Assembly: GCA_022539475.1 (NCBI GenBank)
Contig: VCMS01000202.1
Location: 1-64,000 of the forward strand
Source of the DNA: Gracilaria domingensis
Taxonomy: Eukaryota > Rhodophyta > Florideophyceae > Gracilariales > Gracilariaceae
Length of the DNA stretch: 64,000 bases
Direction: 5' to 3'
The notes below the pieces were generated by a model. The model searched no databases and had not been told where the DNA came from. It was given only the letters and a program-made list of their open reading frames with translations. The translations under genes were made by a program, and so were the position numbers. Shown here in pieces: positions 1 to 55,100 of the stretch. Position 1 is the stretch's first letter. Each line of letters starts with the position of its first letter.

Positions 1-147
1 AAATGCCAAGTGTCAATGGTTTAAGAAATGCTCTATTGGAAGTTGTTTCAAGTGCTACGATGCCTGTAGATAAACTTGCTATGATATGAGATCTCAGTAA
101 TTAAAGTTGTCGTATATATCTTCAATACCTTTTATATTCATGTGGTT

Positions 148-895
148 TTATATCGTGCTGCTTTTCCTCGTAGCCGTACAACAGAGCCACCACATAATTG
201 TCGAATGTACATCCTCCACGCTTTCGAACAGGTTGTGTACTCCCACCGGGATACAATCTTCTTTGACGTGAACGCCGTACACGCCTACCTCATGCAAAGG
301 CCCGTCGCTCAAAGCACTTCCGAACGTCACGATGTCAACCGTATCAATAAATCTCGGTTCATTATCGACAAGATTTCTCCTCCGCTTCCTTTTGTGTATC
401 GCTTGTCCACAATTTCGCAACTTTTATCGCCGGGATAGATAACAAACGCATCCATCTTCTGCAACAGGTCCCCAATAGCAGAATCCACTTCTTCTTTCAC
501 TGCCGCAGTTTGTTGTACACGGAATTGGGAAGGCCACTATCACTTCTGGTCTCCACGAACCCCTTGTCATCATCATTCACAATACCATGCCTTCTATTCA
601 AATCCCTTGCCAGGAACAGTAGTCCGTCAACAGTGTGGTCAAGGGTGTGATCATTGAATGCACCCTTAATTTCCCTCTCGTCAGAGAAACGCAGGAAAGC
701 TCCATGATTCGCCGAGACACCAAACTTATAGTCTCCGAGTCCTTCCATTTTCCCCTCCACGTCGCCCACATCACCCCTGTGACAAGTCCGAAACCAACAC
801 GTTCGTCAATGAACTTCATACACTTCACAACTTCTTCTGGAATTGACTCTCCTTCTCTTCTCAACGTTCCATCAACGGAACTTAATATACCGTAA
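148..895 (-). pseudogene. degraded hypothetical coding frames
   Basis: I do not recognise this gene. Three overlapping minus-strand frames (598-864, 497-769, 148-420) follow one another in transcriptional order and have protein-like composition (for example a charged run around 'SDEREIKGAFNDHTLDHTVDG' and a basic KRKRRR cluster near 380). This looks like one reading frame broken by indels or by unrecognised introns. It lies downstream of, and on the same strand as, the ParB-like and oxygenase genes, so it may be a further cargo gene of the same element. No domain is assigned. The reverse-strand frames of similar length argue for caution. Confidence 0.3.
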
Positions 896-1295
896 CCATT
901 GCATATATGAACTTACACAAGGTATTGGGTGAAATTTCCGCCAAGTCTCTCTGTTCCTCTGCCATTTTTCCTGATACAGTCACCATACTGCCACAAGTAC
1001 CGCATAGACAGGAACTGTATAGACTTCTCAGTTTCATACTTCTCTTAAAAGCAACCTTAAGCGCAGTTCCAGAAATGTTGGGACGCTACATGTTCAATTG
1101 CGAATTGACTGGTGCCACCAATGATGTTAACGATACCGAGCATTTGGCATGTTGCAATTAGACGAAACTGGACCAAAGAGGTATGACATTTGTTCAATTA
1201 CCAGCCTGTCGCACCTTTTCTATGTTCATATGTATAGCCTTGTAATAGTATACTACTCTTAATACTCGCAAGACACTCATAATTTACTAATCATC
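896..1295. other. intergenic, no gene seen
   Basis: Neither strand reads as protein: the plus-strand frame at 907-1161 has no recognisable motif and the minus strand is full of stops. It probably holds the 3' end of the oxygenase-like gene that terminates at 1296. Confidence 0.4.
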
Positions 1296-2077
1296 TCATT
1301 CGCATCCACTTCGAGGCGCTCGCAGCCTCATTATTGGCAAATCGTCATCACTACTACTCTCGAGCACTTCGGTTCTACCGGCGTCCGCTTCCACACCAAT
1401 CTCCACGACCACTTGGTCTTCGTCCATGTCAACCGCCCCACCCTCCTTATCAGACAACAGTTCATCCTCCGCCTCCTCCTCCTCGTCACCATTGACAAAC
1501 GTGGGTCGGAAATCCCGCACCCGATGAACAGCATCAGGTAGTGCGTAGCCCTCTGGTACCATGTACATGTGGTATCTCACCAGCAAATCCATAGACTCGG
1601 GCCTATCCACCTTGTCCTTCCCACTTGCTCCAGCATGTGTCACATCACCACGGCCCACTAATACAGAGTACGGTGGGATGATTATCTTCTTCGCTGGATA
1701 CACCTCCGACATCACTCGCAACTGTTGGTTGTTCATCCCCCCTGATGGCTTCCAGCGCTCACCCAGAGAGGAAAGCCCTCTTTCCCAGAGGCCATTACAA
1801 AGTATCCGGGGTTACCAGTATTCATTGTTTCCTTCGTAACCAGACCACTGAAGTCGGTGTGCAGCGTCTGGCGCTTGCACTTTCTCGTCGTCCCCAGAAA
1901 TCGACCACCAGTTTTCGGAGTGTACATCTTCACAGCTTCTCTTTCATTGTTCCATAGTCCCAAAGCCGCAGCAATTGTACCCATTCGAACATCAAGTAAA
2001 GCACGCGACCTTACAACCCACCTGAGCTCCTCATCATCCTCCGGCTTCTCCACCGTACCCCAACGTGTCGACATCAC
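1296..2077 (-). pseudogene. 2-oxoglutarate/Fe(II) dioxygenase-like catalytic core (frameshifted)
   Basis: Two minus-strand frames (2077-1733 and 1736-1296) meet at a run of six G (about 1733-1742); one extra G would join them. Together they show the order expected of a double-stranded beta-helix 2OG-Fe(II) oxygenase: an HxD-type motif (LHTDF, about residue 75 of the first frame), a GYFVMASG...LWVSAGSH strand pair, then IIIPPYSVLVGRGD followed by the distal iron-ligand histidine (THAGAS) and an arginine (VRYHMYM) that would bind 2-oxoglutarate. An acidic tail with DEEEEAED and SSSDDD stretches ends at a TGA. Family knowledge: such enzymes hydroxylate proteins, small molecules or nucleic-acid bases, and TET/JBP DNA oxidases belong here. 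The substrate is not deducible. The N-terminal part is in the frame ending at 2121, linked by two further indels. Neighbours are a ParB-like gene and, divergently, a DNA methyltransferase-SET gene, so DNA or chromatin modification is a reasonable inference. Confidence 0.6.
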
Positions 2078-2120
2078 TCTCCCCTGAAATGGTCCATCGC
2101 TACCGTCCTTCCATTCTTCA

Positions 2121-3272
2121 TCATCGTTGATTATTTGAACAAACGACTTCTGTTCCTCCCTTTCCGTATATCCGGCATCGCTCCATACTCATTCTCGAAG
2201 AAGTCCACCAACTTCCCCGACACATCTCCGAACTCCCGAACTTTTCCAACTCCTCCCATTTAGGGACACCATTATCCGTCGCAAAGCCATCAAGCACGCA
2301 ATATCCATTCTGCCTTAGCTCAGCTTGCATTCGGGCGAAGAACATTTGCCCAAATTCGTCATGCTCCTTCGCAGCAACCCACAGTACCTCTTCATCATCC
2401 ATACCTGTCGGCCGAGTACGAGGATACTGCATACCAAATGTCTCCGCCCGTAGGCGATGTTCAGCCCTTGCAGCGTGCCAAAAGACAAGATGGTGTACAT
2501 CTCTGAGATTCGAGACACTTAGCAGCTCCGACCTATGTCCCTTCGGCAAGTGAATGACTCTGAGCCAGGGATCCTTGTGCTCAATTACGTTCTTCCCTTG
2601 CCATTCCTGCGGTCTCAGCCTGACATACCCGCACCACGATGGGTTCGGTGGGCCATCATATGGGTCACCTCGAACAAGTCCGTGCTCCTCAGATTCCGGA
2701 AGAGCTGTAGGTAACTCGTCATCAAATGACCCCCCACCTGTCTCTTGCTGATCGTCTGGCGCAGCATCTTTCTCGACGGTGACAACCCGTGGAACTGTCA
2801 CAGCAAGAAGCTCTTCGTCATCCACAAATGCAGAACTGTCTGCGTTCTCTGCATTCGCTCCTTCTTCCAATGCCACGAATTGAACCTTCATCGACCTTCC
2901 TCTCAGCACATGTTCATTTAGTTGAGACATCAGGTCATCCGGTGTCATGCTGTTCAGAGTAGATCTCATCTGTTGTGTGAAAGTCTTTCTCCGTTTCTTC
3001 CTCGGCGGACCCCGGTGTTCTTCTTCAGAGCTATCCAGAACTTCTATGGCACCTCGATTTCGGCCGTGCTCAATTTCCTTATAACTCACGTGCGCCCGTT
3101 CTCGTGCACTTCTTCGCGGCTCCCCTTCTTCACTGGCAGATGTTGCAGCAGCAGCAGCGGGAGTCCTCCTCTTCGTCACGGACTGCTTCACTGGTGCGGG
3201 GGGCGGAATTACCTTGGGCATCGTGCGCAATCGATTCTGAACGGAATTCGTGGCAGTTCTAATTGAGTTCAT
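2121..3272 (-). CDS. basic/acidic nuclear-type protein, N-terminal part of the oxygenase gene
   Basis: A 383-residue frame whose first ~130 residues are low complexity: alanine-rich, with RRSARERA, a DSSEEE acidic patch and a KKRRK nuclear localisation signal (PPRKKRRKT, about residue 90). The second half is a folded-type region (PSWCGYVRLRPQEW..., LVFWHAARAEHRL, an NGYCVLDGFA segment near residue 330). NGYCVLDGF resembles the N-terminal start of 2OG dioxygenase domains, and an 8-bp duplication at about 2222-2237 (two near-identical TTCGGRAG units) throws the frame. Reading across it and one more indel near 2145 continues smoothly into the oxygenase core at 2077. So this is most likely the 5' part of one frameshifted gene. 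Its ATG overlaps the stop of the preceding ParB-gene exon by 14 bases. The start is the first ATG of the frame; the Met in RTMPKV, about 18 residues later, is also possible. Confidence 0.55.
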   Translation of the reverse strand: MNSIRTATNSVQNRLRTMPKVIPPPAPVKQSVTKRRTPAAAAATSASEEGEPRRSARERAHVSYKEIEHGRNRGAIEVLDSSEEEHRGPPRKKRRKTFTQQMRSTLNSMTPDDLMSQLNEHVLRGRSMKVQFVALEEGANAENADSSAFVDDEELLAVTVPRVVTVEKDAAPDDQQETGGGSFDDELPTALPESEEHGLVRGDPYDGPPNPSWCGYVRLRPQEWQGKNVIEHKDPWLRVIHLPKGHRSELLSVSNLRDVHHLVFWHAARAEHRLRAETFGMQYPRTRPTGMDDEEVLWVAAKEHDEFGQMFFARMQAELRQNGYCVLDGFATDNGVPKWEELEKFGSSEMCRGSWWTSSRMSMERCRIYGKGGTEVVCSNNQR

Positions 3273-5135
3273 CCTGCTCCGAACACGCGGCAGGCAATGT
3301 GTTGAAGTTCACAACTTGTCCCAAAAGGAACTGATTCACAGCTGCGTTGTTGTCTGGGTCTTCAACGTCATCTTCATTCGATGGAGCAGACAGACTGATT
3401 TCGCGTTTCAGGAACACTTCCATCGACTCTTCCTCGTTCAGTTCATTCCTCACTGCTCGAGCCGCGCGGAACAGAGACTCTGCTCTATCATAAAAGAAAC
3501 CTCGAACCTCCTCAAAGCTTTTCCATTGCTTTGTCTTCGTCGACTTGCCCTTCAATAGAAACATCTGAAGACAATCAAGAATGAAGGAAAACTCCTCGGC
3601 ATCCAAAACATATAGTGGAGTATGCGACAGATGTTGAGACCTATGTCACTCACAGTCTCACATATATCCTCTAAATGGGCCAGCATTCCCTCACGAGACA
3701 TGAGTTGCAGGGCGACATTGGCATACCTCAGATACTGAGGCTCTTGCACAGTCCCAATCAGTTGGCTCTCCTTCAACACTTCTGTCACTTCTGCAGGATC
3801 CACGTCTGCCGGCGTCACCCCCTCAACATCTTCAATTAGAATGGCGACCACACTAACTATAGAATGTATCTTGTCTGCAAACATCATCCTTCGCATGGTA
3901 CTCGTCGACTCATTGAGGTACGAAGCAACACATAACAATTACTTCATCCCAATGGGCCTCCCATCTCTTCGTATCAGCAGATTGCAACGCCAAAACTTGG
4001 CTAATCGCTTCCACTTCGGTGCACCAGTCGCTGCCAAATATTGTATAGCTTTCAGACGATGCAAACCATCTACAATGAAGCACTTCTTCGTTAGGCGTCC
4101 CTTGTCAGTATCCCTCTCTCCCGTAGTAGCATCTTGTAAGGCCACCACTGGAGAACCCATCGACTGCAATATCCCCCGCTCCTCCATACTCTTCACAAGG
4201 GCTTCAACGTGGCGTTTACTTACTCCACGGAGTAAATTGGGCGGAGTGTCCACCAGAGTGATGTCAACAGTAACAACAACCATCCGGTACTGATTGAGGT
4301 TCACCTTTGGTACCTTCTGACGAATTCGTCTGTACGTCTTGCTCCGAGTAGGTGTCCCTTGTGTTCCAGACCGCTCGCCAGAAACACTTGAACGTGCCAT
4401 TCTTGCGGACAGAAGCACAACGTCATCGTCCTGCTGCTCCGCAGTTTCTGGTGCAGTTTGGGGTACAGATGGACCAGCTCCTTGCGCGGATTGCGCATCC
4501 GCGTCTGGAAGGGGACCTTTCATGATCTCATCTTCCTCCTCTTGCACAGCCGTCCCCTGCTGAACCGTCTGTTTCGACGCAGAAGATCCCCTTGTGTCTA
4601 CGGTCTGATTCATCGCAGGAGAAGCCCTTTTCGACGCAGTGGGCTTCGTAGCGGAGGTAGACTTTGTTTGACCTGTCCGCTTCGTAGCTGGGGATGCTCT
4701 CGTCTCCATAGACCACTTCGTAACAGACGACGGACCTGCCCGCGGAGGTGGTACTGATGCGCTACCTCTCGGTGTTGATGAACTTCGAATTGGCTCCGTG
4801 CGGCTTGTCGGCGTCATCACCTCACTCATAGCGATCACCGTTCCTCGCTTCGACGCCGGAATGCTGGCTGCCACCGGTTCCATCATTTTCTCATCCTAAA
4901 GAGCGGCCGTCCGGAGATCCTGGATATATTGTGGAAGATCCAGGCCCTCCGCCCGGTAAGGGTAGAACGTCTGACCGCTTCGACTGATGAGAATATTATG
5001 AACCACCACAAGACCTGGGTCCAATTGCTTCCCGTGCAACTCGCGGCGTAGAACACTTCCAATTCCATGCAACAACGCTTCCCCGACTATCACCTTTCCT
5101 TCATCCTCAATATCCATCTGCAGAGAAACCCGCAT
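3259..5135 (-). CDS. ParB/sulfiredoxin-fold domain protein, two exons
   Basis: Read from an ATG at 5135. The frame runs to 3654, crosses a 59-nt intron (3595-3653) in phase 0 and ends at a TAG at 3259. An N-terminal segment (5135-4914) is followed by a low-complexity Ser/Thr/Pro linker with repeated SxATK-like units. Then comes a ParB-like domain (about 4290-4000): 'LLRGVSKRHVEALVKSMEER' helix, GILQSMGSPVVAL strand, and the hallmark FIVDGLHRLKA (compare the DGxHR signature of ParB/Srx-fold NTPases and nucleases), then a C-terminal helical/acidic part. Two in-frame stops interrupt it, TAG near 4914 and TAA at 3939-3941. Both fall where glutamine would read naturally (AAL-x-DEKMMEP, GMK-x-LLCVAS), so it is either a recent pseudogene or, less likely, a recoded gene. 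Family knowledge: bacterial ParB binds palindromic parS DNA and hydrolyses CTP; eukaryotic relatives include nucleases. The gene fires away from a palindrome array 0.5 kb upstream. Confidence 0.6.
3595..3653 (-). other. spliceosomal intron, 59 nt
   Basis: On the minus strand a GTGAGT donor follows codons for DICET and the intron ends in GCCGAG. Removing it joins two different frames in phase 0 (…CET | EFSFILDCLQ…). The acceptor is weak in pyrimidines, but the frame restoration is exact. It shows that the element is expressed in, or derived from, an intron-bearing eukaryote. Confidence 0.55.
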
Positions 5136-5639
5136 TTCACCTTACAATAATCGAGTGCTCCGCCGAGTGCGAGGAGTCACGCTTTGCGTACGCTTTCGAA
5201 CACGAGTTGGCTTCATGTTGAACAGCTATTGCAGTGAAAGGTGTATATCAACAATACGCTCGCTCTGGACGATACAAGAACGGATGCGAGCCTTTAAATG
5301 GCGACTTACGCTGGGCACCCCCGCTTTCGGCAGCTCCTCCCAGCGCACTGCCAGACTCGTCCGTGTCCTGTCCGTGGCCGCTCGCACACTGATTGTACGC
5401 TTTAGAGTCGTGGAGTTCGCGCAATGTTGACTCACGCGAGCAATAGTCGCGTTCTCTAATCATGCTCTTCAAATGCTTTGCATAGTAGTCAAGAGTACAC
5501 TCATTCACTTCCATGTACAGCCTACTCCCGCAAATACACGTGGACAGCGGCGCCAACGTACCGGCGGCCGGGTGTTGCGAAATCACTGCTGGGCGGCGTG
5601 TTTTGGGAGGTCCCGGGAAGGCGCCGGAATGTGGCCAGA

Positions 5640-6362
5640 ACGTGCCCGCGGGCGGGGGGGGTCGGTCGTGTTAGGGTAGGTACCCTAACACGACCGGACC
5701 CCCGCGCCCGCGGGCATAAAATCGCACATTTTTCAAAAAATCGTCCAAAACGTGCCCGCGGGCGGGGGGGTCGGTCGTGTTAGGGTAGCTACCCTAACAC
5801 GACCGACCCCCCCCCCCCCCCCGCCCGCGGGCATAAAATCGCACATTTTTCAAAAAATCGCCCAGAACGTGCCCGCGGGCGGGGGGTCCACTCGTGTTAG
5901 GGTAGGTACCCTAACACGACCGACCCCTCCCGCCCGCGGGCACGTTCTGGCCACATTCTGGCACCCTCCGGCGACCTCCCAAAACACTCCTCCCGGCACT
6001 TCCTGTACCAACTGCGTCACCTTAGTGCACCATCCCGTCATCTTCACCCTCCAGACACTCCCTAATTTCCGGGATGGTGCACTGAGGTGACGCAGTGGGT
6101 ACAGGAAGTGCCGGGAGGAGTGTTTTGGGAGGTCTCCGGAGGGTGTCAAAAAATCGTCCAAAACGTGCCCGCGGGCGGGGAGGGGTCGGTCATGTTAGGG
6201 TAGCTACCCTAACACGAGAGGAACCCCCCGCCCGCGGGCACGTTTTGGACGATTTTTTGAAAAATGTGCGATTTTATGCCCGCGGGCGGGGGGGTCCGGT
6301 CGTGTTAGGGTACCTACCCTAACACGACCGACCCCCCCCCCCCTCCGCCCGCGGGCACGTTC
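5640..6362. repeat. five GC-rich palindromes with a TTAGGG-containing core
   Basis: Five copies of a 24-bp core made of half-site GTGTTAGGGTA and its complement lie at 5668-5691, 5777-5800, 5894-5917, 6192-6215 and 6302-6325. The two central bases are GG, GC, GG, GC and CC; the copy at 5777 is a perfect palindrome. Each core is flanked by the G-run/C-run and GCCCGCGGGC palindromes, giving units of about 75-80 bp, separated by an AT-rich spacer of type ATAAAATCGCACATTTTTC. The half-site contains one telomere-type TTAGGG, but never in tandem. Confidence 0.85.
5973..6134. repeat. central long hairpin
   Basis: Arms 5973-6037 and 6070-6134 are near-perfect reverse complements (GACCTCCCAAAACACTCC at the outer end, CACCATCCCG at the inner end) around a ~32-nt loop. 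The stem lies roughly midway between the two divergent genes. Parts of the arm recur at 5580-5615 and 6390-6425, showing stepwise duplication. Confidence 0.8.
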
Positions 6363-6684
6363 TGGCCACATTCCGGCGCCTTCCGGAGACCTCCCAAAAC
6401 ACTCCTCCCGGCACTTCCGGCAGTGATTTCGCTGCACACGCCGTGCACATATATCGAACTAGAGAAAACTAGCGCTTCACACCCACTTGATCCGCGACTT
6501 TTAGCACAATACGGGACCGTTGCAATAGCTCCGAATCGCGACGTGGCCGACACGCGACGCTATCGCTCCGGGCGGACACGGACACGGACGAGACTGGCAG
6601 TGCGCTGGGAGGAGCTGCCGAAAGCGGGGGTGCCCAGCGTAAGTCGCCATTTAAAGGCTCGCCTCCGTTGTTTGCGCTGAAGCG

Positions 6685-8031
6685 ATGGATTTCACCGATG
6701 TTGGAGAGGAGATACATCCTATCGACATGAGTGCTCCGCCTCCGGCGTTCCATGCATATGTCAGACTTTTCTTGGTTCTTCGCGATGCTTTGGCAAACAG
6801 CGATGGAGGCCCTGATCGGCCACGGAACGTGGGGTTTAGAGGGTTAATAGAGTTCTGCGCCGAGAACTATAAGGATATTCTGGAGGCAAGGAAGATGCTT
6901 GAGGAGGCCACTAACTCCAAGAACCTGCAGAACTTGACACTGCAACAGCTGCGAAAGAGTGTTGTGAATAACAAACCTGTGGAACAACGATATCTTGTAA
7001 CGAAGCTTCTTGACAAGAAGGACGGGGATGAGGACCAGAGACTGCGCGATTTTTTCCTTCTCTCTATGGATATGGGTATATACCTACCGGTGCGATGCCT
7101 GGTTGGTTATTTCATGACCAGGAGAAAGCAGGTTCTGAAGACGACAGTGTTCATCTCACCAACAGCTGTGAACCCATTTGAGGTCGTTATATACTTATCA
7201 TACCTCGGCCACATAATGGGAGAGAACGATAACATCCGAATGATGAAGAAGAAACAACCGAAAAAGAAACGAAAAGTGAACCATGCACCATCTGTGTACA
7301 TACCCACTTTTACGTCGTTCTCCAAAGACAACTGTGATCGACTGGGATTCGCTATCATTGAGGTCGTATGGGCATGGAGTTGTTTTGCGGCTCATCTTGG
7401 ATACACGAACGTTCAGCATATGGTGAAACCATACATTTACATGAATATGCAGACGTTGAAGTATACGGCGCTAGAAACACGGGAGTCTGGTTATGCCCCG
7501 CCGAGCCAGAGTACTCGATTCAACACAAAGGATGTGCCACAGAGCAGTACTAGTGGATCGGTGGAGACCTTGAGTGATGAATGCGATACAAACCTCCGAA
7601 TACTGGCTAAGGAATTTTTGACAGACCTCGAAACCGTATGCACCCACGATAGCCTCTATAGCTTACGGGCTGCTCAGATGAGGAACTGGATAGAGTTTTC
7701 GGAGATACGGATGGATACCGTATCTGGTTCTGACTCCGGTGAGCTGCCTGCTCGATTTCAGAAGTTTTCGGAGTTGCTATGGAAACCGATACAGGATATG
7801 CGTCATGCGGCAGGGTTCCATGTCGGCATTCACGCGAAACCTGATATTGAACTGACGAAAACCCCTAAAACTTCCGGTAATGCCGAACCTTCTTCGACCA
7901 AGTCTGCCCCACCCCCACCTCGTCGAGAGTATATGAACCTCGTGAGCTCCGATAGCGACGAGTTCGAGAAGCCGGTGAATCTTGCGGAGCATGTTACAAC
8001 ATCCAAAAGACTGGTATTGAGCCGCCCATGA
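6685..8031 (+). CDS. hypothetical protein with SV40-type NLS
   Basis: An intact 448-residue frame, first gene of the rightward set, starting 25 bases after the outer inverted-repeat arm. No recognised domain. Visible features: a mainly helical N-terminal half (FRGLIEFCAENYKDILEARKM), a lysine-rich stretch around residues 187-197 containing exactly PKKKRKV (the classical monopartite nuclear localisation signal), a hydrophobic helix (VVWAWSCFAAHLGY), and a Ser/Pro-rich, acidic C-terminus (SSDSDEF). Its TGA overlaps the ATG of the methyltransferase-SET gene (ATGA at 8028-8031), so the two are either translated from one transcript or separated by a processing step I cannot see. A nuclear partner of the methyltransferase is the simplest inference. 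Confidence 0.7.
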   Translation: MDFTDVGEEIHPIDMSAPPPAFHAYVRLFLVLRDALANSDGGPDRPRNVGFRGLIEFCAENYKDILEARKMLEEATNSKNLQNLTLQQLRKSVVNNKPVEQRYLVTKLLDKKDGDEDQRLRDFFLLSMDMGIYLPVRCLVGYFMTRRKQVLKTTVFISPTAVNPFEVVIYLSYLGHIMGENDNIRMMKKKQPKKKRKVNHAPSVYIPTFTSFSKDNCDRLGFAIIEVVWAWSCFAAHLGYTNVQHMVKPYIYMNMQTLKYTALETRESGYAPPSQSTRFNTKDVPQSSTSGSVETLSDECDTNLRILAKEFLTDLETVCTHDSLYSLRAAQMRNWIEFSEIRMDTVSGSDSGELPARFQKFSELLWKPIQDMRHAAGFHVGIHAKPDIELTKTPKTSGNAEPSSTKSAPPPPRREYMNLVSSDSDEFEKPVNLAEHVTTSKRLVLSRP

Positions 8032-9806
8032 AGGGGATATCCAGTCTCCTTCGAATGAATATGGACAAGGTGTGGAAGGGGATGAGAAAGTCACACTTTG
8101 TAGCGTACAACTGTGACATGAAGGACCTGAGGCACACACACGAAACGTTTGTGAGTCAGAGTGAGATTTTATGGGGTGAGGCACAGCTTGTCCTAACAGA
8201 CCCTCCCTTTAACACTAGAACGAAGAGGAACAAACGGAATAGTGGTCACGATGTCTTAAGTGAGGAAGACATGATCCGTACGGCTGACTTAATAAGTTCC
8301 GCGCTTCGGTCAGGTGGGCACTTCATTATATTCTGTGCCATGGCACAGTTTCATGTTTGGCACAGGATACTTTCGGAAACGGCGAGTACGAAAGATGAAG
8401 CTGGAAGCGAAGGTAAACCAGAACTCATGCCTTCGTTTAAAGTGGATGCGAATCCACTGGTGTTCATCCGGGATCGAAGTAATGTTGGAGGGAATCCACG
8501 GAAGTTTGGGATACAGCCCGTAACGGAGTACGCCGTTCATGGGGTGAAGCGTGGATTGCGACCATCGGAGGAAGCCAGTCTTACTCCATTTGAGGAGAAC
8601 AATTTCATTCCTTCTACTTTCCCGGCTAACAGGAATGTAATTGACCGGGTGCCAAAACCGAGAGCGGGGGATTGGTTGACATGGAAGGTACATGAGCCAG
8701 GTAGTTCAGTACCAGGTGGGCAGTACATAAGACCGGAGCAGAAGTCGAGGGAGTTGATGAAGGAGTTGATATGTCGCTTCACAAGACCGGGTGATCTTGT
8801 CATGGACATGTTAGCGGGAACTTTTTCTACGGGTATGGCGTGCCTATCGCTGACAAAGCATAGGAAGTTCTTGGGGTGCGAGAAGAATAGGCCATGTTTC
8901 AGCCATGCGAAGCACCATCTAACGACTCTTATGGCCGAAGTTATTCGCGGGGGGAAGAATGACATCCTGGTTGAACAGGAGGTGGTGGATGCGGCTTCAA
9001 CGACTTATGAACGGGTTCCACATCGGGACCGAGGTCGGCTTGAATGGGAGGCTCCATTTGGTTACCCCCAGTATCAAGTGATGCCTGGATATATTACTCA
9101 GTTCCTAGGAAGATACTGGAAGGACTGGGACTTTGTCGAGAAGTGTGGACAGCATACTGTAGATGTTTGGGAGGAGAAGTACCGAGGAGCTCTTAATCTA
9201 ATGGATATGCATATGCTGTTGACTGTTGAAGCCAATCGCTATCGCTTACATATAGCATCTTATAAGATTCGACATCCCCGTGCTGGTATGGGGGTGTTCA
9301 CGGAACATAAGATATTGGCTGGGGAAACTATCTGTCATTTTTATGGAACTTTGGTATACACGGATCTGACGAACCGGAAGGAAAGACACTTAACGTATGG
9401 AAGTGGCTGTCTCGGAGCAACTCCAGTGCGGTACAAGTTGTTTTCTATGATGGTCACTGTGACTGGTACGGAGTTTCTGCACCTGAGGAACAGACCAGGA
9501 CAGGCTCAGGATAGAAAGGAGAGCGAAGTCTACATTCTCCCGGCGCCTTTTTGTATCGGAGGCTACATTAACGACGCCGGATATCATGCCGGGGATCCCG
9601 ATTTATCGGAGCCCCGGTCAAACAGGACTCGAAGTGCCAATGTGCAGGTGGTGGAAGCGAAGTCCGTGATACAGTTTAAGTCCGACCTCTCTAACTATGC
9701 TCTACTTCGTTGTAGAGCAGTAAGAGATATTGAGAGGGGCGAAGAGTTGTATTTCAACTACGGAGAGCAGTACGCCTGGGACTGGGCTCTGACATTGGAG
9801 CAATAG
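8028..9806 (+). CDS. beta-class DNA amino-methyltransferase fused to a SET domain
   Basis: An intact 592-residue frame with two enzymes. Residues ~50-290 are a DNA methyltransferase: catalytic motif IV DPPF at residues 58-61 comes first, and the S-adenosylmethionine motif I (DMLAGTFSTGMACL, about 262-275) comes after, followed by FLGCEKN. Order IV-to-I with DPPF/Y is typical of beta-class N6-adenine or N4-cytosine enzymes of bacterial type. Residues ~412-592 are a SET domain: RAGMGVF near the start (GxG), GYINDAGY, a SANVQ segment, and ERGEELYFNYGEQYAW at the end, matching the SET core where the Tyr and the NxxH-like pseudoknot region bind AdoMet and lysine; the usual NHxC is changed. Family roles: DNA base methylation and protein-lysine (histone) methylation. 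The stop is TAG; 14 further codons lead to a TGA. The start may instead be a later Met (residue 10 or 12). Confidence 0.8.
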   Translation: MKGISSLLRMNMDKVWKGMRKSHFVAYNCDMKDLRHTHETFVSQSEILWGEAQLVLTDPPFNTRTKRNKRNSGHDVLSEEDMIRTADLISSALRSGGHFIIFCAMAQFHVWHRILSETASTKDEAGSEGKPELMPSFKVDANPLVFIRDRSNVGGNPRKFGIQPVTEYAVHGVKRGLRPSEEASLTPFEENNFIPSTFPANRNVIDRVPKPRAGDWLTWKVHEPGSSVPGGQYIRPEQKSRELMKELICRFTRPGDLVMDMLAGTFSTGMACLSLTKHRKFLGCEKNRPCFSHAKHHLTTLMAEVIRGGKNDILVEQEVVDAASTTYERVPHRDRGRLEWEAPFGYPQYQVMPGYITQFLGRYWKDWDFVEKCGQHTVDVWEEKYRGALNLMDMHMLLTVEANRYRLHIASYKIRHPRAGMGVFTEHKILAGETICHFYGTLVYTDLTNRKERHLTYGSGCLGATPVRYKLFSMMVTVTGTEFLHLRNRPGQAQDRKESEVYILPAPFCIGGYINDAGYHAGDPDLSEPRSNRTRSANVQVVEAKSVIQFKSDLSNYALLRCRAVRDIERGEELYFNYGEQYAWDWALTLEQ

Positions 9807-10055
9807 ATGAGTTCAGTACCGAATAGAAAGTAAATATGCTTGTGAGTGTTGCAGCTGCCTGCAATACGCGTTGTTGTACATGTATAATGGAGCTCTTCAT
9901 CTGTAACGGCGATATTTGCGACCCATTGGGCACCTCAAATTCCTAAAAAGCAGGAACTGCGGAGTCTCCCGGAATATCAGAGCCATGCACCCCCCCCCCA
10001 CCCCCTCCCCCCCTCCCCAACAATTTCGTTTCATTACCCTGTTTATCTCCACAAC
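9807..10055. other. short intergenic gap with a C-rich tract
   Basis: No gene. A tract of nearly pure C with a few A and T lies at about 9987-10018, just before the next start codon. Such a C/G tract also occurs in the divergent control region. It may belong to a promoter; nothing else is visible. Confidence 0.5.
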
Positions 10056-10943
10056 ATGTGTATAACGCCGAGAAAGCGAAATAGTACGCAGCGGAACAAG
10101 AGTGGACAGAAGAAGAGAAGAGCATCGGATGATACAAATCAGGCTACAAGCACCGCACTTCCTAAACAGAAGTCGTCCTCGACGAAGGAGAGAGTCAGTG
10201 GGCGTCCTTCTACAGTACTCTCTCGCCCATCTCGCAGCGGAGCGTCTTCCGGGATTGCGTCAAGAATTCGTGGATCAGCGAACGATGTCGTGCCGTCAAC
10301 TGCCGATAATGCAAATCGTGCATCTGTCTCTGCTCCTCAGGAAGATGAGGTAACTCGGCCCAGCGGGTCAGGACAGGAGGGCATGACAACTGGAACCGAA
10401 GAGGTTCGTATGACACCAAAACCTTCATGTCCCCGGCCGATATCGAAGACCGGAGCTACTGGGGCGCGGGTTACGCCGCCCAGTGGATCTGGACAACAAG
10501 GGGCAATGACGAGAAGTCGTGAGAGCCCTAGTATATTAAGATCGTCACGTCCATCCCTGTCTTCTAGAACTGGGGCCGCTATGAATCGTATCATGCCTCG
10601 AAATGGGTCCGGACAAGGGAGAAAGACAATAAGAAATCGAGAGACAACTGATAGACGAGTTACTCCTCGACCTTCCCCTCTTTCCAGAACGGGGGCCGTT
10701 GCAGCTCGTACGAGGCCCAATTCATCTGATATACCATGCCATGGAGGAGGAAAGACACGGGAGTTGGAGCTCGGAGCCGTGCCAAGGGTGGACACAGAAC
10801 GCCTGCAGCCTCTCGTGTCTAAGGGTATGGCACATGAGGATAGTTCCGATAACGAAATAACACCGAATCCTGCGGCATTACCGGGGCCTGTCGCCGAAGA
10901 GGCTAGGGAAATACCGGAAGATATCCACACTGGTGTGAAATAA
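10056..10943 (+). CDS. basic, Ser/Pro-rich repeat protein (N-terminal half of a longer frame)
   Basis: A 295-residue low-complexity frame. The start MCITPRKRNS is followed by a KKRR basic cluster. From about residue 98 to 225 there are three degenerate repeats of ~40 residues, each with a GSGQ.G core, a TR/TG..E stretch, a PRPS-type segment and an SRTGA end. The C-terminus is acidic. The frame stays open after the TAA at 10941-10943: a second TAA follows near 10995, and then the same frame continues as the 11019-12452 gene. The two are therefore probably one gene with two in-frame stops, both at positions where Gln would fit (GVK-x-TSMN, CLK-x-KVKTLQ). Function unknown; disorder and basic charge suggest nuclear or DNA-associated. 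Confidence 0.5.
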   Translation: MCITPRKRNSTQRNKSGQKKRRASDDTNQATSTALPKQKSSSTKERVSGRPSTVLSRPSRSGASSGIASRIRGSANDVVPSTADNANRASVSAPQEDEVTRPSGSGQEGMTTGTEEVRMTPKPSCPRPISKTGATGARVTPPSGSGQQGAMTRSRESPSILRSSRPSLSSRTGAAMNRIMPRNGSGQGRKTIRNRETTDRRVTPRPSPLSRTGAVAARTRPNSSDIPCHGGGKTRELELGAVPRVDTERLQPLVSKGMAHEDSSDNEITPNPAALPGPVAEEAREIPEDIHTGVK

Positions 10944-11018
10944 ACCTCTATGAACAGACGTGATCTTTTAAATGAACTGAATTGCTTGAAATAAAAGGTT
11001 AAGACGCTACAAGAGGAC

Positions 11019-12452
11019 TTGATGGTTCGGGCAATTCTAGTGAAGGTCGCCCAAGAGCAGAGTACGGCTTTGAAAAAGAGGCTTGAAGAGAAGGATCTAG
11101 TCATTGAAGGGCTAAGAGGGGCACTGAAACAGGAGGGAGATAGGAGTACACGTGCTGGTGAACCTGGGCAGACAGGTCGAAAGAAGCATAAAATTGAGGT
11201 GTGCGACGAGTTTCGAGCGGTTGCTCGAGCAGTGTATCACAACATGCTGACGTGGGCAAGGAGAGAAACAAGTGAGCTATGGCTCGAAGGTGAGTCGCTC
11301 ACCCGAAATTGGGGTAACCGTGCCGAGAAGGTGGAAGACGCAACTGAGAGTGGGGAAGGGCTTATTGAGCCAGAGGAAGGTGGTTCATACATGGTTTCTA
11401 AAAACCCCGTGGAGCTCTTGGGCAGTTTTGGCATGTTCACACCGTCGGTAGAGGGGGGGCCAGATGCTTTGCTGAAGAAAATGGTTGAAAGCGAGTTGAA
11501 GGAGTTGAGCTGGGAAGGTATTAGAAATGCATCTCTTACCGACAGGTGTATACTGGAACTTTGTGCAGATATGTGCCTTAGGCAGAGAATGCGGCAGACC
11601 ATGAGTGACGTCGTGGGCGTTCGTAAGAGAAATACGAGGGATAAACTATTTCTGCTCCTGGGGTACGATCTGATTTGGAGAAGAACAAAGCTGGTAGAAG
11701 AGAATGCTGACGAACTCACAATGCAGTTGAAGGAAGCGCAGAAGAAGATACTGCGTCTTGACGAAAATGGTGTACCGAACACTTCATGGTGGAGAAAAGC
11801 CCCATTTGTTCGTCTAAAGTACTCCAATGCGGACAATGTCGAGGATATGCCGACGGAAGATCTAGACTTGTTCTTCCGAAACCGTGTCGGGGTACAAGTA
11901 CTGAAGGAGTTTATTGGGTATGATGTGGAAGACAAGGATACGGGCACCTTTTTAGATGGCACAATACTGTTGCTCGCACGTTTGGGCGCTTGGGTGTTGA
12001 CGGTCGTGAGCCTTCTAAGTACGGATGTGTCAAGGGGTGGCCAGAGACAGAAACTGTTTACAAAGAAGTTTGCCGAACTGCTACCTCTGTGTTTAAAGAA
12101 TGTTCTGGGGGATGTTAGGCAACGTGCCTTGAGGACCAATTCCAGCGAGTTTCATAATTTTGGTACGACAACGGAAGATTGGACTAAGGTTCTTGGTAAT
12201 GACATGAGAGAGGCTACATTTGGATATCGAATGCCGTCGAACGGAAGACTTTACCTCACTGTGAAAGAAAAATTTTTTATTGACAGTGTGAGCCGAAGAT
12301 TGGGGTCTATTAGCGATTGCTTCGTTGGTGAATGCGAGGAAGGGGATATGGAGTTCAAGGAAATGGACATGAACGATTTCGGAGGTAACACAGGATCACA
12401 GAAAAAGGCACCACAAGGTGAACATGTAGAGGATGGAGCCCTTAATGTTTAA
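11019..12452 (+). CDS. hypothetical coiled-coil protein (C-terminal half of the 10056 frame)
   Basis: A 477-residue frame, not recognised. It opens inside a coiled coil (KVKTLQEDL...LKKRLEEKDLVIEGLRGAL) that begins upstream of the first ATG, around 10960. That supports joining it to the preceding frame. A mixed helical body follows, with another heptad stretch (LVEENADELTMQLKEAQKKILRL, about residues 225-250) and a hydrophobic helix (FLDGTILLLARLGAWVLTVVSLL, about residues 315-337) that could be buried or a single membrane segment. The TAA stop at 12450-12452 overlaps an ATG (AATGTTTAA) that opens a +1 frame which still looks coding to about 12640. The gene sits between the methyltransferase-SET gene and the convergent transposase. 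Confidence 0.6.
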   Translation: MMVRAILVKVAQEQSTALKKRLEEKDLVIEGLRGALKQEGDRSTRAGEPGQTGRKKHKIEVCDEFRAVARAVYHNMLTWARRETSELWLEGESLTRNWGNRAEKVEDATESGEGLIEPEEGGSYMVSKNPVELLGSFGMFTPSVEGGPDALLKKMVESELKELSWEGIRNASLTDRCILELCADMCLRQRMRQTMSDVVGVRKRNTRDKLFLLLGYDLIWRRTKLVEENADELTMQLKEAQKKILRLDENGVPNTSWWRKAPFVRLKYSNADNVEDMPTEDLDLFFRNRVGVQVLKEFIGYDVEDKDTGTFLDGTILLLARLGAWVLTVVSLLSTDVSRGGQRQKLFTKKFAELLPLCLKNVLGDVRQRALRTNSSEFHNFGTTTEDWTKVLGNDMREATFGYRMPSNGRLYLTVKEKFFIDSVSRRLGSISDCFVGECEEGDMEFKEMDMNDFGGNTGSQKKAPQGEHVEDGALNV

Positions 12453-12692
12453 GGCTGTACAAGATCAACGTGCTCAGTTGGTCCTTCATCTGAATCATGA
12501 TAGAATCGATTGATGTAGAATCGGTGTTGAAACCATTGAAGTGGAGGACAAAAAGGTGGAGCAGGGTAGTTTGATCGAACAACATGGACAGTTCCCTGTA
12601 GTGCAGAAGCCGGAACCATCCCGTACCAAGGAGTTAACTCTACGATAGTCTCCGCTTTGGAATGACGAGGGAACGGAAGAGTGTGGTTCTTT
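12453..12692 (+). other. convergent 3' gap, partly coding-like
   Basis: The gap between convergent genes. A plus-strand frame (FKAVQDQRAQLVLHL, then VETIEVEDKKVEQ) reads like a frameshifted extension of the upstream protein to a stop near 12645, with one internal TGA. No terminator or polyadenylation signal could be fixed. Confidence 0.35.
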
Positions 12693-15628
12693 TCATCGTT
12701 TGTAGCCCACCCGTAAAGATATGCATTTCAATATGTGGTCGATGTTTGTTGCGGGGGGTAAAACCTCGAAATACCGGACGAATGCCACCTCTGGTGCGGT
12801 AAGTGCAGAATCAAGGAGAGATATTCGAATCAGAGCGACTACCTGGGCAACCCAAGTCTCTGAATCTTCTCCGCTTACCAATACAGTGGAAAACTTTGGC
12901 TTTCTACTGGGACCAAATGCTGGAGAAGCGAAGACACGTTGGATGATGGGGTATTTGGGTCGTCCCAGCTTAAGTGCCTTAGAAGACGAATCGAAGTGTT
13001 CAAGAGTCGGAACGAAACCGCCTTTCACGAGGGCCGAATTCACCAGAGTTATCCTTGTCTTTTCTGGGAAGTATGTAATAGAGTGCTCATCCAGTGTTTC
13101 TTTCACGAGACTGAGGAAAGGAGGAAGGGCCTGTTCACCAATTTGGTCAAGAATCGACCTTGTGTCCGTACTTGAGAACATCTCTCTAACAGCAGTCCAT
13201 GTTTTTGAACTGGACATACTTGAAACACAATGTTGAAGAGCTCGTAAAGTGAAAGAACGCCCTCTCATTGCAAACCGAGGAAGCTGTGTGGAAGTTCCTG
13301 GTAAACCTGGATTACGCTGGTAAGGAGTGTTGCCATTCCATTGCTTTCTAACATGTCCGTGCTCAATGGAGCGAATAGTCTCTTCCACAGCGGTTGCTGT
13401 TCTTCTGGAAGTCTTTTTGTAGTGTCTTTTAAATAGCAGGTGTGCATGTTCGTATATGCCTGCGTCGTAGTACTTGATACTTCCCAGACGGCGAATATCG
13501 TCCACGAGATGATCGAGAAGATGAAACTTCAGAGTTCCCAGTCTGGAGGGATGAAAATCCGCCAGAGTCTTTGTTGCGGAACGCTTGAAGGCTTCAATCT
13601 CCGAACTAAGACACAGGAGAGAGCTTTCAGTCCAATACGGGTCACGATTGTATCTGAATAAGGTCGAGAGCAAGTCCGAGTACTGAGAGAAAACGGTTGT
13701 GATTGGGGCAACGTCCTGTTCTCCACAGCATATGTCAAAGAATGCTCCTATGAAGGGAAAGACCATGTCAAGTGCTTTGTAGTTTTCGGCCTCCAGCATT
13801 CCATGAAGGCCGTCTTTCGTGAAGATGCCATTCAAAGATTTGCCTTTCTCCTGCGTGGAGAAATCGATATGTAAACCTTTGGCAGGAGAATCGCGTTCTA
13901 TGGCAGCTAGAATTGCGTTTGCATGGTTGAGGAGTTGGGTGCGTATCGTTCGAAATGAACGCGATGCAGATGTTCCTATTGTGGTGCACAGGGTGTCTGA
14001 CTGCAGTCTCTCGATTGTGGCCGTTTTTATCAACTTTGAGATGCCGAGATGCAAGTTGTGTAATGGTTCGAATGAGAACAGACTGTATGGAGACAATCCC
14101 GGGATCATTCCAAGGCTTACGGAAGTTTCGAGGAACGAAGGAATGAGAGATATGGAATTTGAACGCATCAGAGTATCCGCTTGAGATCTCCTCTCCCTCG
14201 CACGACGTGGACGTCTTTCCGCCTCGTCTTTTTGTGCATGTTGCAAGATAGCTGTGTATGTCTTTCGGATGCTTTTCGTGTGCTTTTGAGAACGTCCGTT
14301 GAATGAGGTGGAAATAGGACTGCATAAAGATGAGCGAGGGGCTTTGCATCTATGACACGGGCTTCCGTTTTGGTCCCATGAAGAATGGACAGAATGTCCT
14401 TAGCCTCAGGAATATCCGCACAATAACTTGCAAGCAGAGGATGGCACACTCGACTTAGTTTGTCTTCGCCGATGAACTGAAAACCTTTCTGCGTGAGATT
14501 TAGAATGGGCTCCAGGACTTGACGAAGAGATTCTTGAAGGATTTGCATCCTGGACTCGCGTAGAGACTTGCTAGAAACGAATGGCATTGCGTCTGCTTCA
14601 GATGCGGAAACCTCGATCAGTGTGGTAGGGAAGTATGCCACTACTGTGAGGTCATCACGGATACACTTACGGCGAAGCTGGTCGGAGAAGTTGAGAAATA
14701 TGAGGTGAAGAGGATAGGCGGTAACCGATGTTTGCTTTAGAGTTGTTGAAGACTTATCGGTGTATACCTGCAGAAGACCTACGAAAGATTCACTGTAACT
14801 TATTTCTTGGGAGTAACACACTATTCTACTATCCAAAGAGCCCATGACCATTTCCTTAAGTTTTGAGGTGGCGTCTCTTGCGAGAGAGCCGGACATGGGG
14901 TGAGATATTTTCGTGGAGTGGGTCTGAGGTATAGGGTGGAAGAATGTGTTTTCGTTGTTAGCCAACTGGAGCTGTTTCACAAGTGTCTGAACGGGGTCTC
15001 TCGTGTAGAGGGTGGCGCTGAACTTACATCCTTCTGGCGAGACAGTTCTGCGATTGAAACCGTCCTTTGAGGCGTATCGTTCGAAAATGGCGTTCTTCAG
15101 TTCTGTACAGCGCTTGGAACTTGTTATGGTCTCATTGAATCGCTTTTGCGAGAATCGCGGGTCCCGAAGTAGCCCAATTAGCTCGTCAGCCTCACGATGA
15201 CCAAGGTTGGAAGCTACTGAAGCCAGACAAACCGTGAGATAATCCATATGCAAATCACCGAGGTTCTCTTCAGAAGGCACTGGGCGGGAACTGCTTCCGT
15301 GCTCTCGCTCTAATGACGCGGGACCCAGGGAAGGAGAAACACAATGCAAAGTGTCCGGAATGGGAGGGGCGCACGGAGTGGGATCGACGATGTCCTCGGA
15401 CACCGGACGCTCGGGAAGGCGACAAGGGGCAGTGACCGTTTCGGAAGATGCGGGCGCGGGCGCGGAAAGCTTGAGACGCTTGCTTCTCCGAATGGGCCGG
15501 CTATTGTCGTCTTCCAGCGCTGCTTTCAGACGAAACGGGCAATGGTTGACATGCTGTTGAAGAGATAAGACTCCTCGGCGAGTAACGAAGGGGCACCCAC
15601 GCTTCTTATGTGTACAGTAGTAGACCAT
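12693..15628 (-). pseudogene. CACTA/Plavaka-type DDE transposase, one frameshift
   Basis: Two long minus-strand frames (15724-14168 and 14246-12693) form one protein of ~970 residues after a 1-nt correction near 14355-14365, where a CHRC...SSLC cysteine motif continues the first frame in the second. I take the start at 15628 because the paralogue at the right edge begins at the matching place. Visible features: an N-terminal C2HC-type zinc finger (CTHKKRGC...LQQHVNHC); LQVYTDKSSTTL (equivalent of the SDKTxLT motif with the first catalytic Asp); AYPLHLIFLNFSDQLRRK (equivalent of YPVYLTIGNI..IRR); VVAYFPTT; ADIPEAKDIL; and FEPLHNLHLGI near residue 480 (the D-LH-LhLG region). These are the landmarks of CACTA/Plavaka (KDZ-related) transposases, which cut and paste DNA between terminal inverted repeats. 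It is convergent with the cargo genes. TIRs were not located. Confidence 0.75.
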
Positions 15629-16034
15629 GGGAAGAAGAAATGAACGAGAAACGACGAAAAAGACTGCAAGGGAAGGTTGTAAGAAGGGAGAAGGAGGTCG
15701 AGCGACAGTCAAGATCGACGTCATGCTGAGAACGGAGAATATATTTTGAGTTTAAATCACGTGCTTTCGTTCAAAAAGGAACGTAGGTACACGTCGACCT
15801 CAACACAAGGGTGTACTTCTCGTATTATCTACCACTGGTTATAAACCTGTGGTTTCGCAACGTTGTAGGCTGTACACTTGTCCAATCTCGCACAGAAAAA
15901 TAAATCTCTTCCCTCCGCCGCCGCCGCCCGTCCGACGTCCGACCTTCTGTTACCGTCGTCATTCGTGCCATCCTCGCGTTCTACTCCGCTCCGTCGTACT
16001 TTTTTCCGCCCTCGCACTCGCTACGAAATATCGT
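15629..16034. other. transposase 5' flank, no gene
   Basis: Upstream of the transposase. The minus-strand frame could start as early as 15724, but the extra residues are hydrophobic and not shared with the paralogue. A CCGCCGCCGCC run lies near 15918. No element end could be recognised. Confidence 0.4.
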
Positions 16035-16121
16035 GCGGAGAAAGAGAATGAAGTACGCTTCATCTCTGCGTAATGGATTCCATTAAGCGGACATGAAGCG
16101 TACCTCATTCTCTTTCTCCGC
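16035..16121. repeat. 29-bp-arm hairpin
   Basis: Arms 16035-16063 and 16093-16121 are reverse complements with one mismatch (GCGGAGAAAGAGAATGAAGT at the left outer end). The loop holds a second near-palindrome around TAATGG/CCATTA, and a shorter hairpin on CATCCGT follows at about 16151-16170. Possibly part of a non-autonomous element or the subterminal end of the adjacent transposon. Confidence 0.75.
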
Positions 16122-16300
16122 CCTCGTCGGACGCCTCCATAAAGCGGACAGCATCCGTATCTCACGGATGTATTCCATGCAGTCTTTTCGTACGTGCTTC
16201 CATATCCTTCTACGTATCTTTGTTCTAAACTAACCAATCCTCACCACGTCTCTTCGCGCTCTGCGACATGTAAACGGCAGGAAAAAGGCTTTGGGTTACT

Positions 16301-16820
16301 TTTGCGAGTTACTAGGTCCCTCGACTTTTCTAGCGCAACGTTTCTGTTTTGGTTTATCAATGGTACGTTCCATCGCATTTCAAATGTATCCAACGGAGCA
16401 TTGACTAACTTATGGATACTTTCTGCTTGCGTATACAGGTAAACGACCAATTTCATTTCGTCTCTCAAGATCGATGTCTGACTGTTCGGGATAGACGATT
16501 CTGGTGCTTGGTTGGGACATAGGCTGCTCTTTCGTTTATCGCATCTTGCGGTATGTTTGCTGCATGGGCATTCTTGGTGTCCTTGCTTGTGAGTTCTCGC
16601 TTCGACACCTTTCGCGCTTTACGATGATGGTGGGCTGGTAATCTAACCGATCCCTTTCCTTCTTCTTCTTCCCTTTGCGAGTTACTAGGTCCCTCGACTT
16701 TTCTAGCTCAACGTTTCTGTTTTGTTTTATCAATGGTAGGTTCCATCGCATTTCAAATGCATCCAACGGAGAATTGACTAACTTATGGAGACTTTCTGCT
16801 TGCGTATACAGGTAAATGAC
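16301..16820 (+). repeat. direct repeat, two ~145-bp copies (16301-16444, 16674-16820)
   Basis: Both copies begin TTTGCGAGTTACTAGGTCCC and end TATACAGGTAAA(C/T)GAC, with about ten differences by eye. They are 373 bp apart and separated by unrelated sequence. No coding potential. The junction ...ATACAGGTAA contains an acceptor-like CAG next to a donor-like GTAA. This is a segmental duplication, not a tandem satellite. Confidence 0.8.
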
Positions 16821-16860
16821 TTTTGATGCGTACGTAGCTCACGAGTTGCAGGTGCAGGTT

Positions 16861-53970: not shown

Positions 53971-54139
53971 GTTGCGGCATATGTCACAGACGTTTACGCC
54001 CATGTGAGATGGCAAGCTTTGCAAGATCGGAATAACCGAACACAGGATTGACCTAATTTCAAACACACGGCCAATCTCACAGCACCCTTACAGGACTGGA
54101 CCGACAGCTTGGCAAGAGTAGAAAGCTCAAGTTAAGGAA

Positions 54140-54931: not shown

Positions 54932-55100
54932 CATCGCCACATGTTTATCTCTACCTAGGGCTGGTTTACCGTATGCCATCGATACAGATGCGAGCGACTA
55001 CCAAGTTGGCTGCGCACTGTTCCAAACCACTGAAGATGGTGAGCTATCGCCAATTGGGTATTGGCCACGAAGCCTCTACGTTCAAGCGAGAAATTACTCG

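What the first reader, a model, noticed from the sequence alone, without database searches (positions are those of the whole stretch)
1..15728. A large transposon-like unit carrying a chromatin-modification toolkit
Within 16 kb one finds a ParB-like gene, a 2OG-Fe(II) oxygenase-like gene, a DNA amino-methyltransferase fused to SET, two unknown nuclear-type proteins and a CACTA/Plavaka-type transposase, arranged in two divergent sets around a shared palindromic control region. Seen: domains, strands, shared leader arms. Known: KDZ-type transposons of basidiomycetes are linked to TET/JBP oxidases, and bdelloid rotifers recruited a bacterial-type N4C methyltransferase. Inferred: this is one mobile element that writes (and perhaps oxidises) DNA marks and a histone mark, to shield itself or control its host. 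I know of no described element with this gene set.
Basis: partly seen in the sequence, partly recalled or inferred. Interest (0 to 1): 0.9.

Follow-up and report, generated by a model that had tools for sequence, protein, structure and literature searches.

The report
Red-algal giant transposon with epigenetic genes
This is a roughly 23-kb jumping gene, present in hundreds of copies in a red seaweed, that carries enzymes predicted to mark DNA and histones alongside its own transposase; related DNA-marking cargo is already known from algal transposons, but this combination is unusual.

Summary
The host is not a fungus but the red alga Gracilaria domingensis. The window starts at a contig edge and lacks the left 5.5 kb. 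The full element is about 23.1 kb with short inverted termini (CGTCTGT...ACAGACG); 510 left and 473 right ends match exactly in the 78-Mb assembly. Of 44 end pairs, 2-bp target duplications occur in 18 of 25 short copies but 3 of 19 long ones. The Plavaka-type transposase is stop-free in 37 of 42 scored copies. ParB and the putative 2OG oxygenase form one ~1300-aa protein; an unknown domain, an N6-adenine-type DNA methyltransferase and SET form another. They diverge from a palindrome array. Epimerase and HAD-hydrolase genes are also carried. pN/pS is 0.24-0.49. Short copies without the methyltransferase also jumped. ParB-methyltransferase cargo in algal transposons is already in print. New here: the SET and ParB-oxygenase fusions, the metabolic genes, the anatomy. 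Best reading: self-marking against silencing; untested.

The parts
127..1083 (-). HAD-type hydrolase gene (319-aa frame in the C222 copy; no frame of 120 aa or more listed here in the window copy). A second, convergent HAD-type gene lies just left of base 1 in C222.
   Evidence: Pfam Hydrolase_3 E 2e-4 for the C222 counterpart and 1.3e-11 for its neighbour; window placement by colinearity, coordinates approximate
1296..5216 (-). ParB-2OG fusion gene, one ~1300-aa protein in intact copies; broken into several frames in the window
   Evidence: 1308-aa open frame in copy C296 (L083); open frames of 1294-1308 aa without a stop in 7 of 107 matched places; window frames
3811..4328 (-). ParB-like domain (motif IVDGLHRL)
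   Evidence: PHROG ParB-like partition protein E 5.5e-4; GmrSD_N E 0.14, whose membership of the ParB clan is recalled; motif DGxHRL aligned with P0021, P0016, P0018
1463..2740 (-). putative 2OG-Fe(II) oxygenase domain
   Evidence: motifs HTD / SH / RGDxxHAG / RYH conserved in P0021 at 45% identity; no profile hit
5276..6672 (.). shared divergent control region: 93-nt inverted arms (5276-5368, 6580-6672) around an array of palindromes, core GTTAGGGTANSTACCCTAAC at 5670, 5779, 5896, 6194, 6304
   Evidence: 2 to 5 cores in four other copies
6685..9806 (+). unknown N-terminal domain + DNA amino-methyltransferase + SET, one 1055-aa frame in intact copies; split into two ORFs near 8030 here
8184..8897 (+). 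methyltransferase domain: TDPPFN motif before the MDMLAGTFST motif
   Evidence: PF01555 E 4.3e-13; nearest solved sequences DpnA 7.3e-15 and CcrM 1.6e-11; invariant TDPPxN in 18 aligned sequences
9285..9764 (+). SET domain
   Evidence: PF00856 E 1.1e-7; P0001-P0013 align through it
10056..12452 (+). unknown gene(s): two overlapping-region ORFs
   Evidence: ORFs; no Pfam match
12693..15724 (-). Plavaka-type transposase, split in two ORFs here; 1093-1100-aa frame elsewhere
   Evidence: PF18759 E 1.9e-15 in the ORF 14168-15724, 5.7e-14 for the full frame of C222; 37 of 42 scored copies without a stop
15725..17434 (.). right subterminal region with 152-nt direct repeats (16296-16447, 16669-16820) and three CTGGACGACCC repeats near the end
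17435..17441 (+). right terminus ACAGACG, inverse of the left terminus CGTCTGT, which lies outside the window
   Evidence: matches of 39 other copies end within window 17434-17455; ends compared

Best explanation
A giant Plavaka-lineage (EnSpm/CACTA-like) cut-and-paste DNA transposon of a red alga. Shown: about 23 kb long, short inverted termini, 2-bp target duplications, a stop-free transposase in many copies, and cargo inside the termini as two divergent multidomain proteins (ParB-like + putative 2OG oxygenase; unknown domain + N6-adenine-type DNA methyltransferase + SET) flanking an array of palindromes. Inferred: the ParB-like domain binds the element's own DNA, perhaps the palindromes; the methyltransferase places N6-methyladenine there; SET adds a histone methyl mark and the oxygenase removes or alters a repressive mark. 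Together they keep the element transcribed and hide it from silencing. These proteins act in trans or are not needed for each jump, because short copies lacking the methyltransferase-SET gene also transposed. Confidence in the structural part is about 0.95; the number below is for the self-marking mechanism.
For: One unit: the same termini bracket long and short copies; 510 left and 473 right exact ends, 0 for the reversed control. 2-bp duplications in 18 of 25 copies under 16 kb, 1 in 16 expected by chance. A 22.8-kb copy with both cargo genes has TG/TG (C57). Short copies C27 and C41 have duplications (AC, GA) and are internal deletions lacking the methyltransferase-SET gene. Cargo function kept: pN/pS over 20 copies is 0.49 (N-terminal part), 0.27 (MTase), 0.24 (SET). 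18 relatives, best 46% identity; 9 of 18 list both Pfam domains. TDPPxN and the D-x3-GT of motif I are invariant in the alignment of one copy with 17 of the 18 relatives (P0017 not given). A ParB-like N-terminus is joined to the MTase in P0016 and P0018 (alignment; PHROG ParB E 0.0071 for P0018 only), which suggests a functional link. A diverged ParB-2OG relative (P0021, 45%) and an MTase-SET relative (P0002, 39%) both list a longest contig of 20,528 bp and 4 contigs: suggestive of conserved linkage, not proof.
Against: Only 3 of 19 long copies show the duplication (about 1 expected by chance), so movement of the full-length form is less well shown; I attribute this to assembly chimeras in repeats longer than reads, or recombination, without test. 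Short copies without the methyltransferase multiplied well, so the cargo is not needed in cis. No enzyme activity, binding site or mark was measured. The 2OG assignment rests on motifs alone. The ranking that chose the 20 copies favours conserved proteins in the MTase-SET part, though not in the N-terminal part. Sugar-metabolism genes on the same element fit general gene capture as well as a dedicated toolkit. The window's own copy is broken in all three main genes.
Confidence: 0.5

Rival explanations
1. Transposition control: the methyltransferase marks the ends or the palindromes so that the transposase is timed to replication or distinguishes parent from new copies, as adenine methylation does for some bacterial transposons (recalled); SET and oxygenase are secondary.
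For: Adenine-type methyltransferase and ParB-like domain encoded with the transposase; palindrome array at the divergent promoter region.
Against: The palindromes lie in the middle of the element, not at the ends. Copies without the methyltransferase gene transposed, though trans action is possible. It does not explain SET.
Confidence: 0.2
2. Passenger cargo: the element captures genes at random (ribulose-phosphate epimerase, HAD hydrolases, methyltransferase) and most have no role for it.
For: Metabolic genes with no obvious transposon role are present. Short copies have lost most of the cargo.
Against: pN/pS below 1 in the methyltransferase-SET gene. The same two architectures persist in relatives at 45-46% identity. 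ParB-methyltransferase recurs in an unrelated superfamily, Sola1 (PMC12477816).
Confidence: 0.2
3. Host-directed manipulation: the enzymes act genome-wide to change host chromatin rather than marking the element.
For: Hundreds of copies of the element exist, many of them with cargo genes; SET and DNA methyltransferase domains need no element-specific target.
Against: No data on targets; the ParB-like domain and palindrome array suggest a local target.
Confidence: 0.07
4. The Plavaka transposase is an independent insertion next to an unrelated epigenetic gene cluster.
For: Short copies with transposase sequence but without the methyltransferase exist.
Against: Those copies share both outer termini and the left-end region with the long form. 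No terminus was seen between cargo and transposase: unbroken 97-98% matches run across that boundary in four copies.
Confidence: 0.02

Closest known systems
Sola1-1_Ec32 of Ectocarpus (PMC12477816; section 5 read, passages)
   Same: Giant algal DNA transposon (21.5 kb) carrying a ParB-like domain and an N4C/N6A methyltransferase; self-marking proposed there
   Different: Sola-1 transposase; ParB and methyltransferase in one 1104-aa protein; no SET, oxygenase or metabolic gene mentioned in the passage
Giant EnSpm elements with accessory genes in red algae (Petroll et al. 2025, Bostrychia; not held; known only through PMC12477816)
   Same: Same host phylum; EnSpm/CACTA relatives; methyltransferase cargo in red-algal transposons is attributed to it
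   Different: Cannot be compared: text not seen. It may already describe much of this
PlavakaA lineage (Kojima 2025, PMC12730594; abstract, passages, sections 26, 4 and 21)
   Same: Plavaka transposase, 2-bp target duplication
   Different: PlavakaA termini are TGT..ACA, here CGTCTGT...ACAGACG; described from fungi; the word ParB does not occur in that paper, and 'methyltransferase' (7 times) concerns other enzymes in the passages I saw
TET/JBP-carrying fungal transposons (same paper)
   Same: DNA transposons carrying a DNA-mark enzyme of the 2OG type
   Different: TET/JBP acts on 5mC; TET+ Plavaka are all PlavakaB; membership of our oxygenase in TET/JBP was not shown
SET-carrying HarbingerS and MuDR of Phytophthora (Repbase Reports 2014, cited in PMC12730594; originals not seen)
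   Same: DNA transposons carrying SET
   Different: No fused DNA methyltransferase mentioned in that passage
Bdelloid N4CMT (PMC8885841, passages read)
   Same: Bacterial-type N6_N4_Mtase in a eukaryote
   Different: Catalytic motif SPPY and 4mC there, TDPP[FY]N here; presented there as a recruited host gene

Membership tests
Plavaka (CMCT, EnSpm-like) transposon | Plavaka transposase domain | tested here: met
   PF18759 E 1.9e-15 (window), 5.7e-14 (full frame), both above the curated cut-off
[quoted passage not shown]
   D332, D446, C467-x2-C470, H745-x3-H749, E769 invariant with P0022-P0024; assignment of the catalytic residues is by inspection
PlavakaA | 2-bp target duplication | tested here: met
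   18 of 25 copies under 16 kb, 3 of 19 longer ones; never more than 2 bp in the 30 pairs where match length was measured
PlavakaA | Termini 5'-TGT..ACA-3' | tested here: not met
   Outer termini are CGTCTGT...ACAGACG in most ends read, with changes in the outermost bases of some; TGT begins 4 bp inside
ParB-methyltransferase algal transposon cargo | ParB-like domain and N6_N4_Mtase encoded in one transposon | tested here: met
   on two polypeptides here, on one in P0016 and P0018
TET/JBP dioxygenase | Recognisable TET/JBP sequence or structural similarity | tested here: inconclusive
Beta-class N6-adenine DNA methyltransferase | DPPY-type motif before the AdoMet motif, nearest to N6A enzymes | tested here: met
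   TDPP[FY]N then FAGTFST; DpnA 7.3e-15 and CcrM 1.6e-11 score far better than N4C PvuII 1.3e-3; base specificity itself not tested
SET histone methyltransferase | Catalytic activity on a histone lysine | not testable with these tools
   Domain match only

The most novel reading that the evidence does not exclude
A transposon that carries a complete, self-targeting mark system (reader, DNA writer, histone writer, eraser) and, through hundreds of copies, gives up to roughly a tenth of a seaweed genome its own bacterial-style N6-adenine and histone code.
Probability: 0.22. Interest if true: 0.88.

Novelty: new variant of a known kind. Interest (0 to 1): 0.63.

Why it matters
If the enzymes work, this is a natural case of a mobile element bringing a bacterial-type DNA mark and a histone writer in one protein, and a dioxygenase tethered to a ParB-like domain. 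Whether N6-methyladenine acts as an epigenetic mark in many eukaryotes is disputed (recalled); a high-copy element with its own writer, in a seaweed, would make that testable with long-read data. It also shows the ParB-methyltransferase idea in a second transposon superfamily (Plavaka here, Sola1 in Ectocarpus), which argues that it is useful to transposons.

Tried and rejected
Rejected: fungal host (names and contig length point to Gracilaria domingensis); independent transposase insertion; separate ParB and 2OG genes; left element boundary at window base 1 (the match continues 1.5 kb and more); capture of linear DNA without target duplication, which I considered after the first pairs read and dropped once short copies gave 2-bp duplications.

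Led nowhere: relatives in IMG/VR (59 loci from a capped scan, only part of the methyltransferase at 21-49% identity) and in bacterial/archaeal genomes (58 loci, capped); the ParB-2OG protein in viral contigs (none; single-sequence query, so close relatives only); P0018 against annotated phages (none); Rfam on the window (0 matches); PDB profiles for the 2OG and ParB domains (no significant match; a ParB chain at E 1.1). Own-genome searches score only the best candidates (for example 42 of 1798 transposase candidates), so copy counts from them are lower bounds.

Rows dropped: I gave the script 91 of 107 ParB-2OG rows (the last 16 left out), 74 of 75 rows and 126 of 150 methyltransferase rows (24 partial matches left out). 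End pairs were picked by eye from the roughly 100 places that each lists, one right end (C57) coming. The 44 pairs count the C53 left end twice, once with each of two possible right ends (11.2 and 26.3 kb); neither gives a duplication. One further left end read, of an inverted second copy in C222, lacks the CGTC of the terminus and was not paired. Right-end terminal bases differ from ACG in some pairs and were read by position.
Full report
What the window holds. The window is G000:C202:1-64000 of a 78-Mb, 680-contig assembly. Two relatives of its ParB-2OG protein, 94% and 89% identical, carry NCBI names from Gracilaria domingensis, and the contig length given for one of them (1,013,300) equals that of contig C22 here. 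The host is therefore a red alga, not a basidiomycete. A published size of 78 Mb for this species fits (PMC10388701, passages).

One element, larger than reported. Matches of 39 other copies to the right-hand part of the block end within window 17434-17455; the terminus is ACAGACG at 17435-17441. To the left, other copies continue about 5.5 kb beyond base 1, which is the contig edge. In contig C222 the element runs about 23.1 kb from CGTCTGTGTTCT to the inverse of CGTCTGTCTCTTGCA. Exact end patterns occur 510 times (left) and 473 times (right), with none for the reversed control. Pairing ends by eye within the listed places gave 47 copies, mean 14.8 kb; if all ends belonged to such copies the family would be about 7 Mb, near 9% of the assembly (rough). 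Of the 47, 15 lie at 10-11.3 kb, 11 at 13-14.5 kb and 13 at 19 kb or more.

Target duplications. I read the flanks of 44 end pairs. With three terminal bases set aside at each end, 30 pairs gave 12 of 16 short and 2 of 14 long copies with equal dinucleotides (Fisher p 0.0013); the longest equal stretch in these was never over 2 bp. Adding (10 pairs: 5 of 7 short, 1 of 3 long) and four pairs read (1 of 2 short, 0 of 2 long) gives 18 of 25 short (under 16 kb) and 3 of 19 long (16.9 kb and over). One in 16 is expected by chance. One long copy with a duplication, C57 (22.8 kb, TG/TG), holds both cargo genes; taken alone this could be chance. The scarcity in long copies is unexplained; misjoined long repeats or recombination are my guess.

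Short copies are deletion derivatives. C27 (10.2 kb, duplication AC) keeps both ends, the palindromes and most of the transposase, and lacks the methyltransferase-SET gene and most of the ParB-2OG gene. C41 (13.8 kb, of which 10 kb was fetched; duplication GA) lacks both genes and keeps the transposase region. They moved, so the cargo is not needed in cis.

Genes. The ParB-2OG gene is one open frame of 1308 aa in copy C296, with frames of 1294-1308 aa and no stop in 7 of 107 matched places. Its ParB-like domain is recognised by PHROG ParB families (best 5.5e-4). Its C-terminal region has oxygenase motifs conserved in P0021 but no family match, so 2OG is a motif-based reading. The second gene is a 1055-aa frame, stop-free in 9 of 75 rows (one search shows three): an unknown N-terminal domain, methyltransferase, SET. 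In an alignment of one copy with 17 of the 18 relatives the TDPPxN and motif I residues are invariant, and the nearest solved structures by sequence are N6-adenine enzymes. The transposase is stop-free in 37 of 42 scored copies at 96-100% identity and shows the CxxC and HxxxH motifs. Also carried: a ribulose-phosphate 3-epimerase gene (E 6.4e-65; many of the 147 scored places keep only residues 154-259, and a 58%-identical gene on C17 may be the host's own), two HAD-type hydrolase genes, and unknown ORFs.

Linkage and selection. 35 of 91 ParB-2OG places have a divergent methyltransferase within 7 kb, 26 of them 4-5 kb away, against about 0.8 by chance; 27 of 74 methyltransferase-SET places have a divergent ParB-2OG place; 6 of 42 transposase places have a methyltransferase on the expected side, 5 of them at 3575-3581 bp. 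These are subsets of best-scored hits on a fragmented assembly full of deletion copies, so lower bounds. In 20 copies pN/pS is 0.49, 0.27 and 0.24 for the N-terminal, methyltransferase and SET parts. The copies were ranked by a match to the last two parts, which biases those values down; the N-terminal value is free of that bias. Pairs of copies are not independent, so no significance is claimed.

Relatives. 18 proteins share the methyltransferase, best 46% identity; 9 of 18 list both Pfam domains, and 13 align through the SET region. Two (P0016, P0018) join a ParB-like N-terminus to the methyltransferase and lack SET. P0002 and P0021, relatives of the two cargo genes, list the same longest contig length, 20,528 bp, which suggests conserved linkage in another organism. 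The transposase has three relatives above threshold at 31-38% identity, none listing that contig length.

Known and new. [quoted passage not shown] it also cites giant red-algal EnSpm elements. The cited red-algal paper is not held, so overlap with it is unknown. PMC12730594 describes Plavaka lineages and TET-carrying transposons. The listings of my searches for the combination with SET and for ParB-methyltransferase in algal transposons showed no other such paper in this library. I therefore call it a new variant of a known kind.

Mechanism. Shown: one transposon, its ends, its duplications, open genes, pN/pS below 1. Inferred: ParB-guided self-marking by N6-adenine methylation and histone methylation, with an oxygenase acting on a mark. 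None of the activities was tested.

Noticed in passing
window 5670-6323: Palindrome core GTTAGGGTANSTACCCTAAC contains TTAGGG/CCCTAA, resembling a telomere repeat (recalled) in a palindrome; 2 to 5 cores per copy in the five copies looked at, many at about 110-bp spacing.
   Followed up: partly
L037:661-1437 and G000:C17:505012-505731: Element-borne ribulose-phosphate 3-epimerase, with a 58%-identical gene elsewhere that may be the host's own; many element copies keep only residues 154-259.
   Followed up: partly
L036:6866-7822 (+) and L036:8050-8946 (-): Two convergent HAD-type hydrolase genes; a stretch of about 100 bp is about 70% identical between them in inverted orientation, so they may be a duplicated pair.
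   Followed up: no
L001, L002: Other, more diverged methyltransferase-SET families in the same genome (L001 45% identical to this one over the MTase-SET part and 55% to P0001; L002 31%), so several related elements may coexist.
   Followed up: partly
C359:104545-104597 (L043): The left flank of one copy looks like a fold-back palindrome of element sequence from near window 12440, a sign of nested or inverted rearrangement (by eye).
   Followed up: no
L029-L031 (C465): Two partial copies lie next to each other in opposite orientation.
   Followed up: no
window 34629-35402 and 51726-56192: By eye, a hAT-type transposase C-terminus and a Gypsy-type retrotransposon; not searched against any library.
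   Followed up: no
P0019, P0020: Public gene models of the ParB-2OG gene skip the stretch that holds the oxygenase motifs, although the frame is open there in copy C296.
   Followed up: partly
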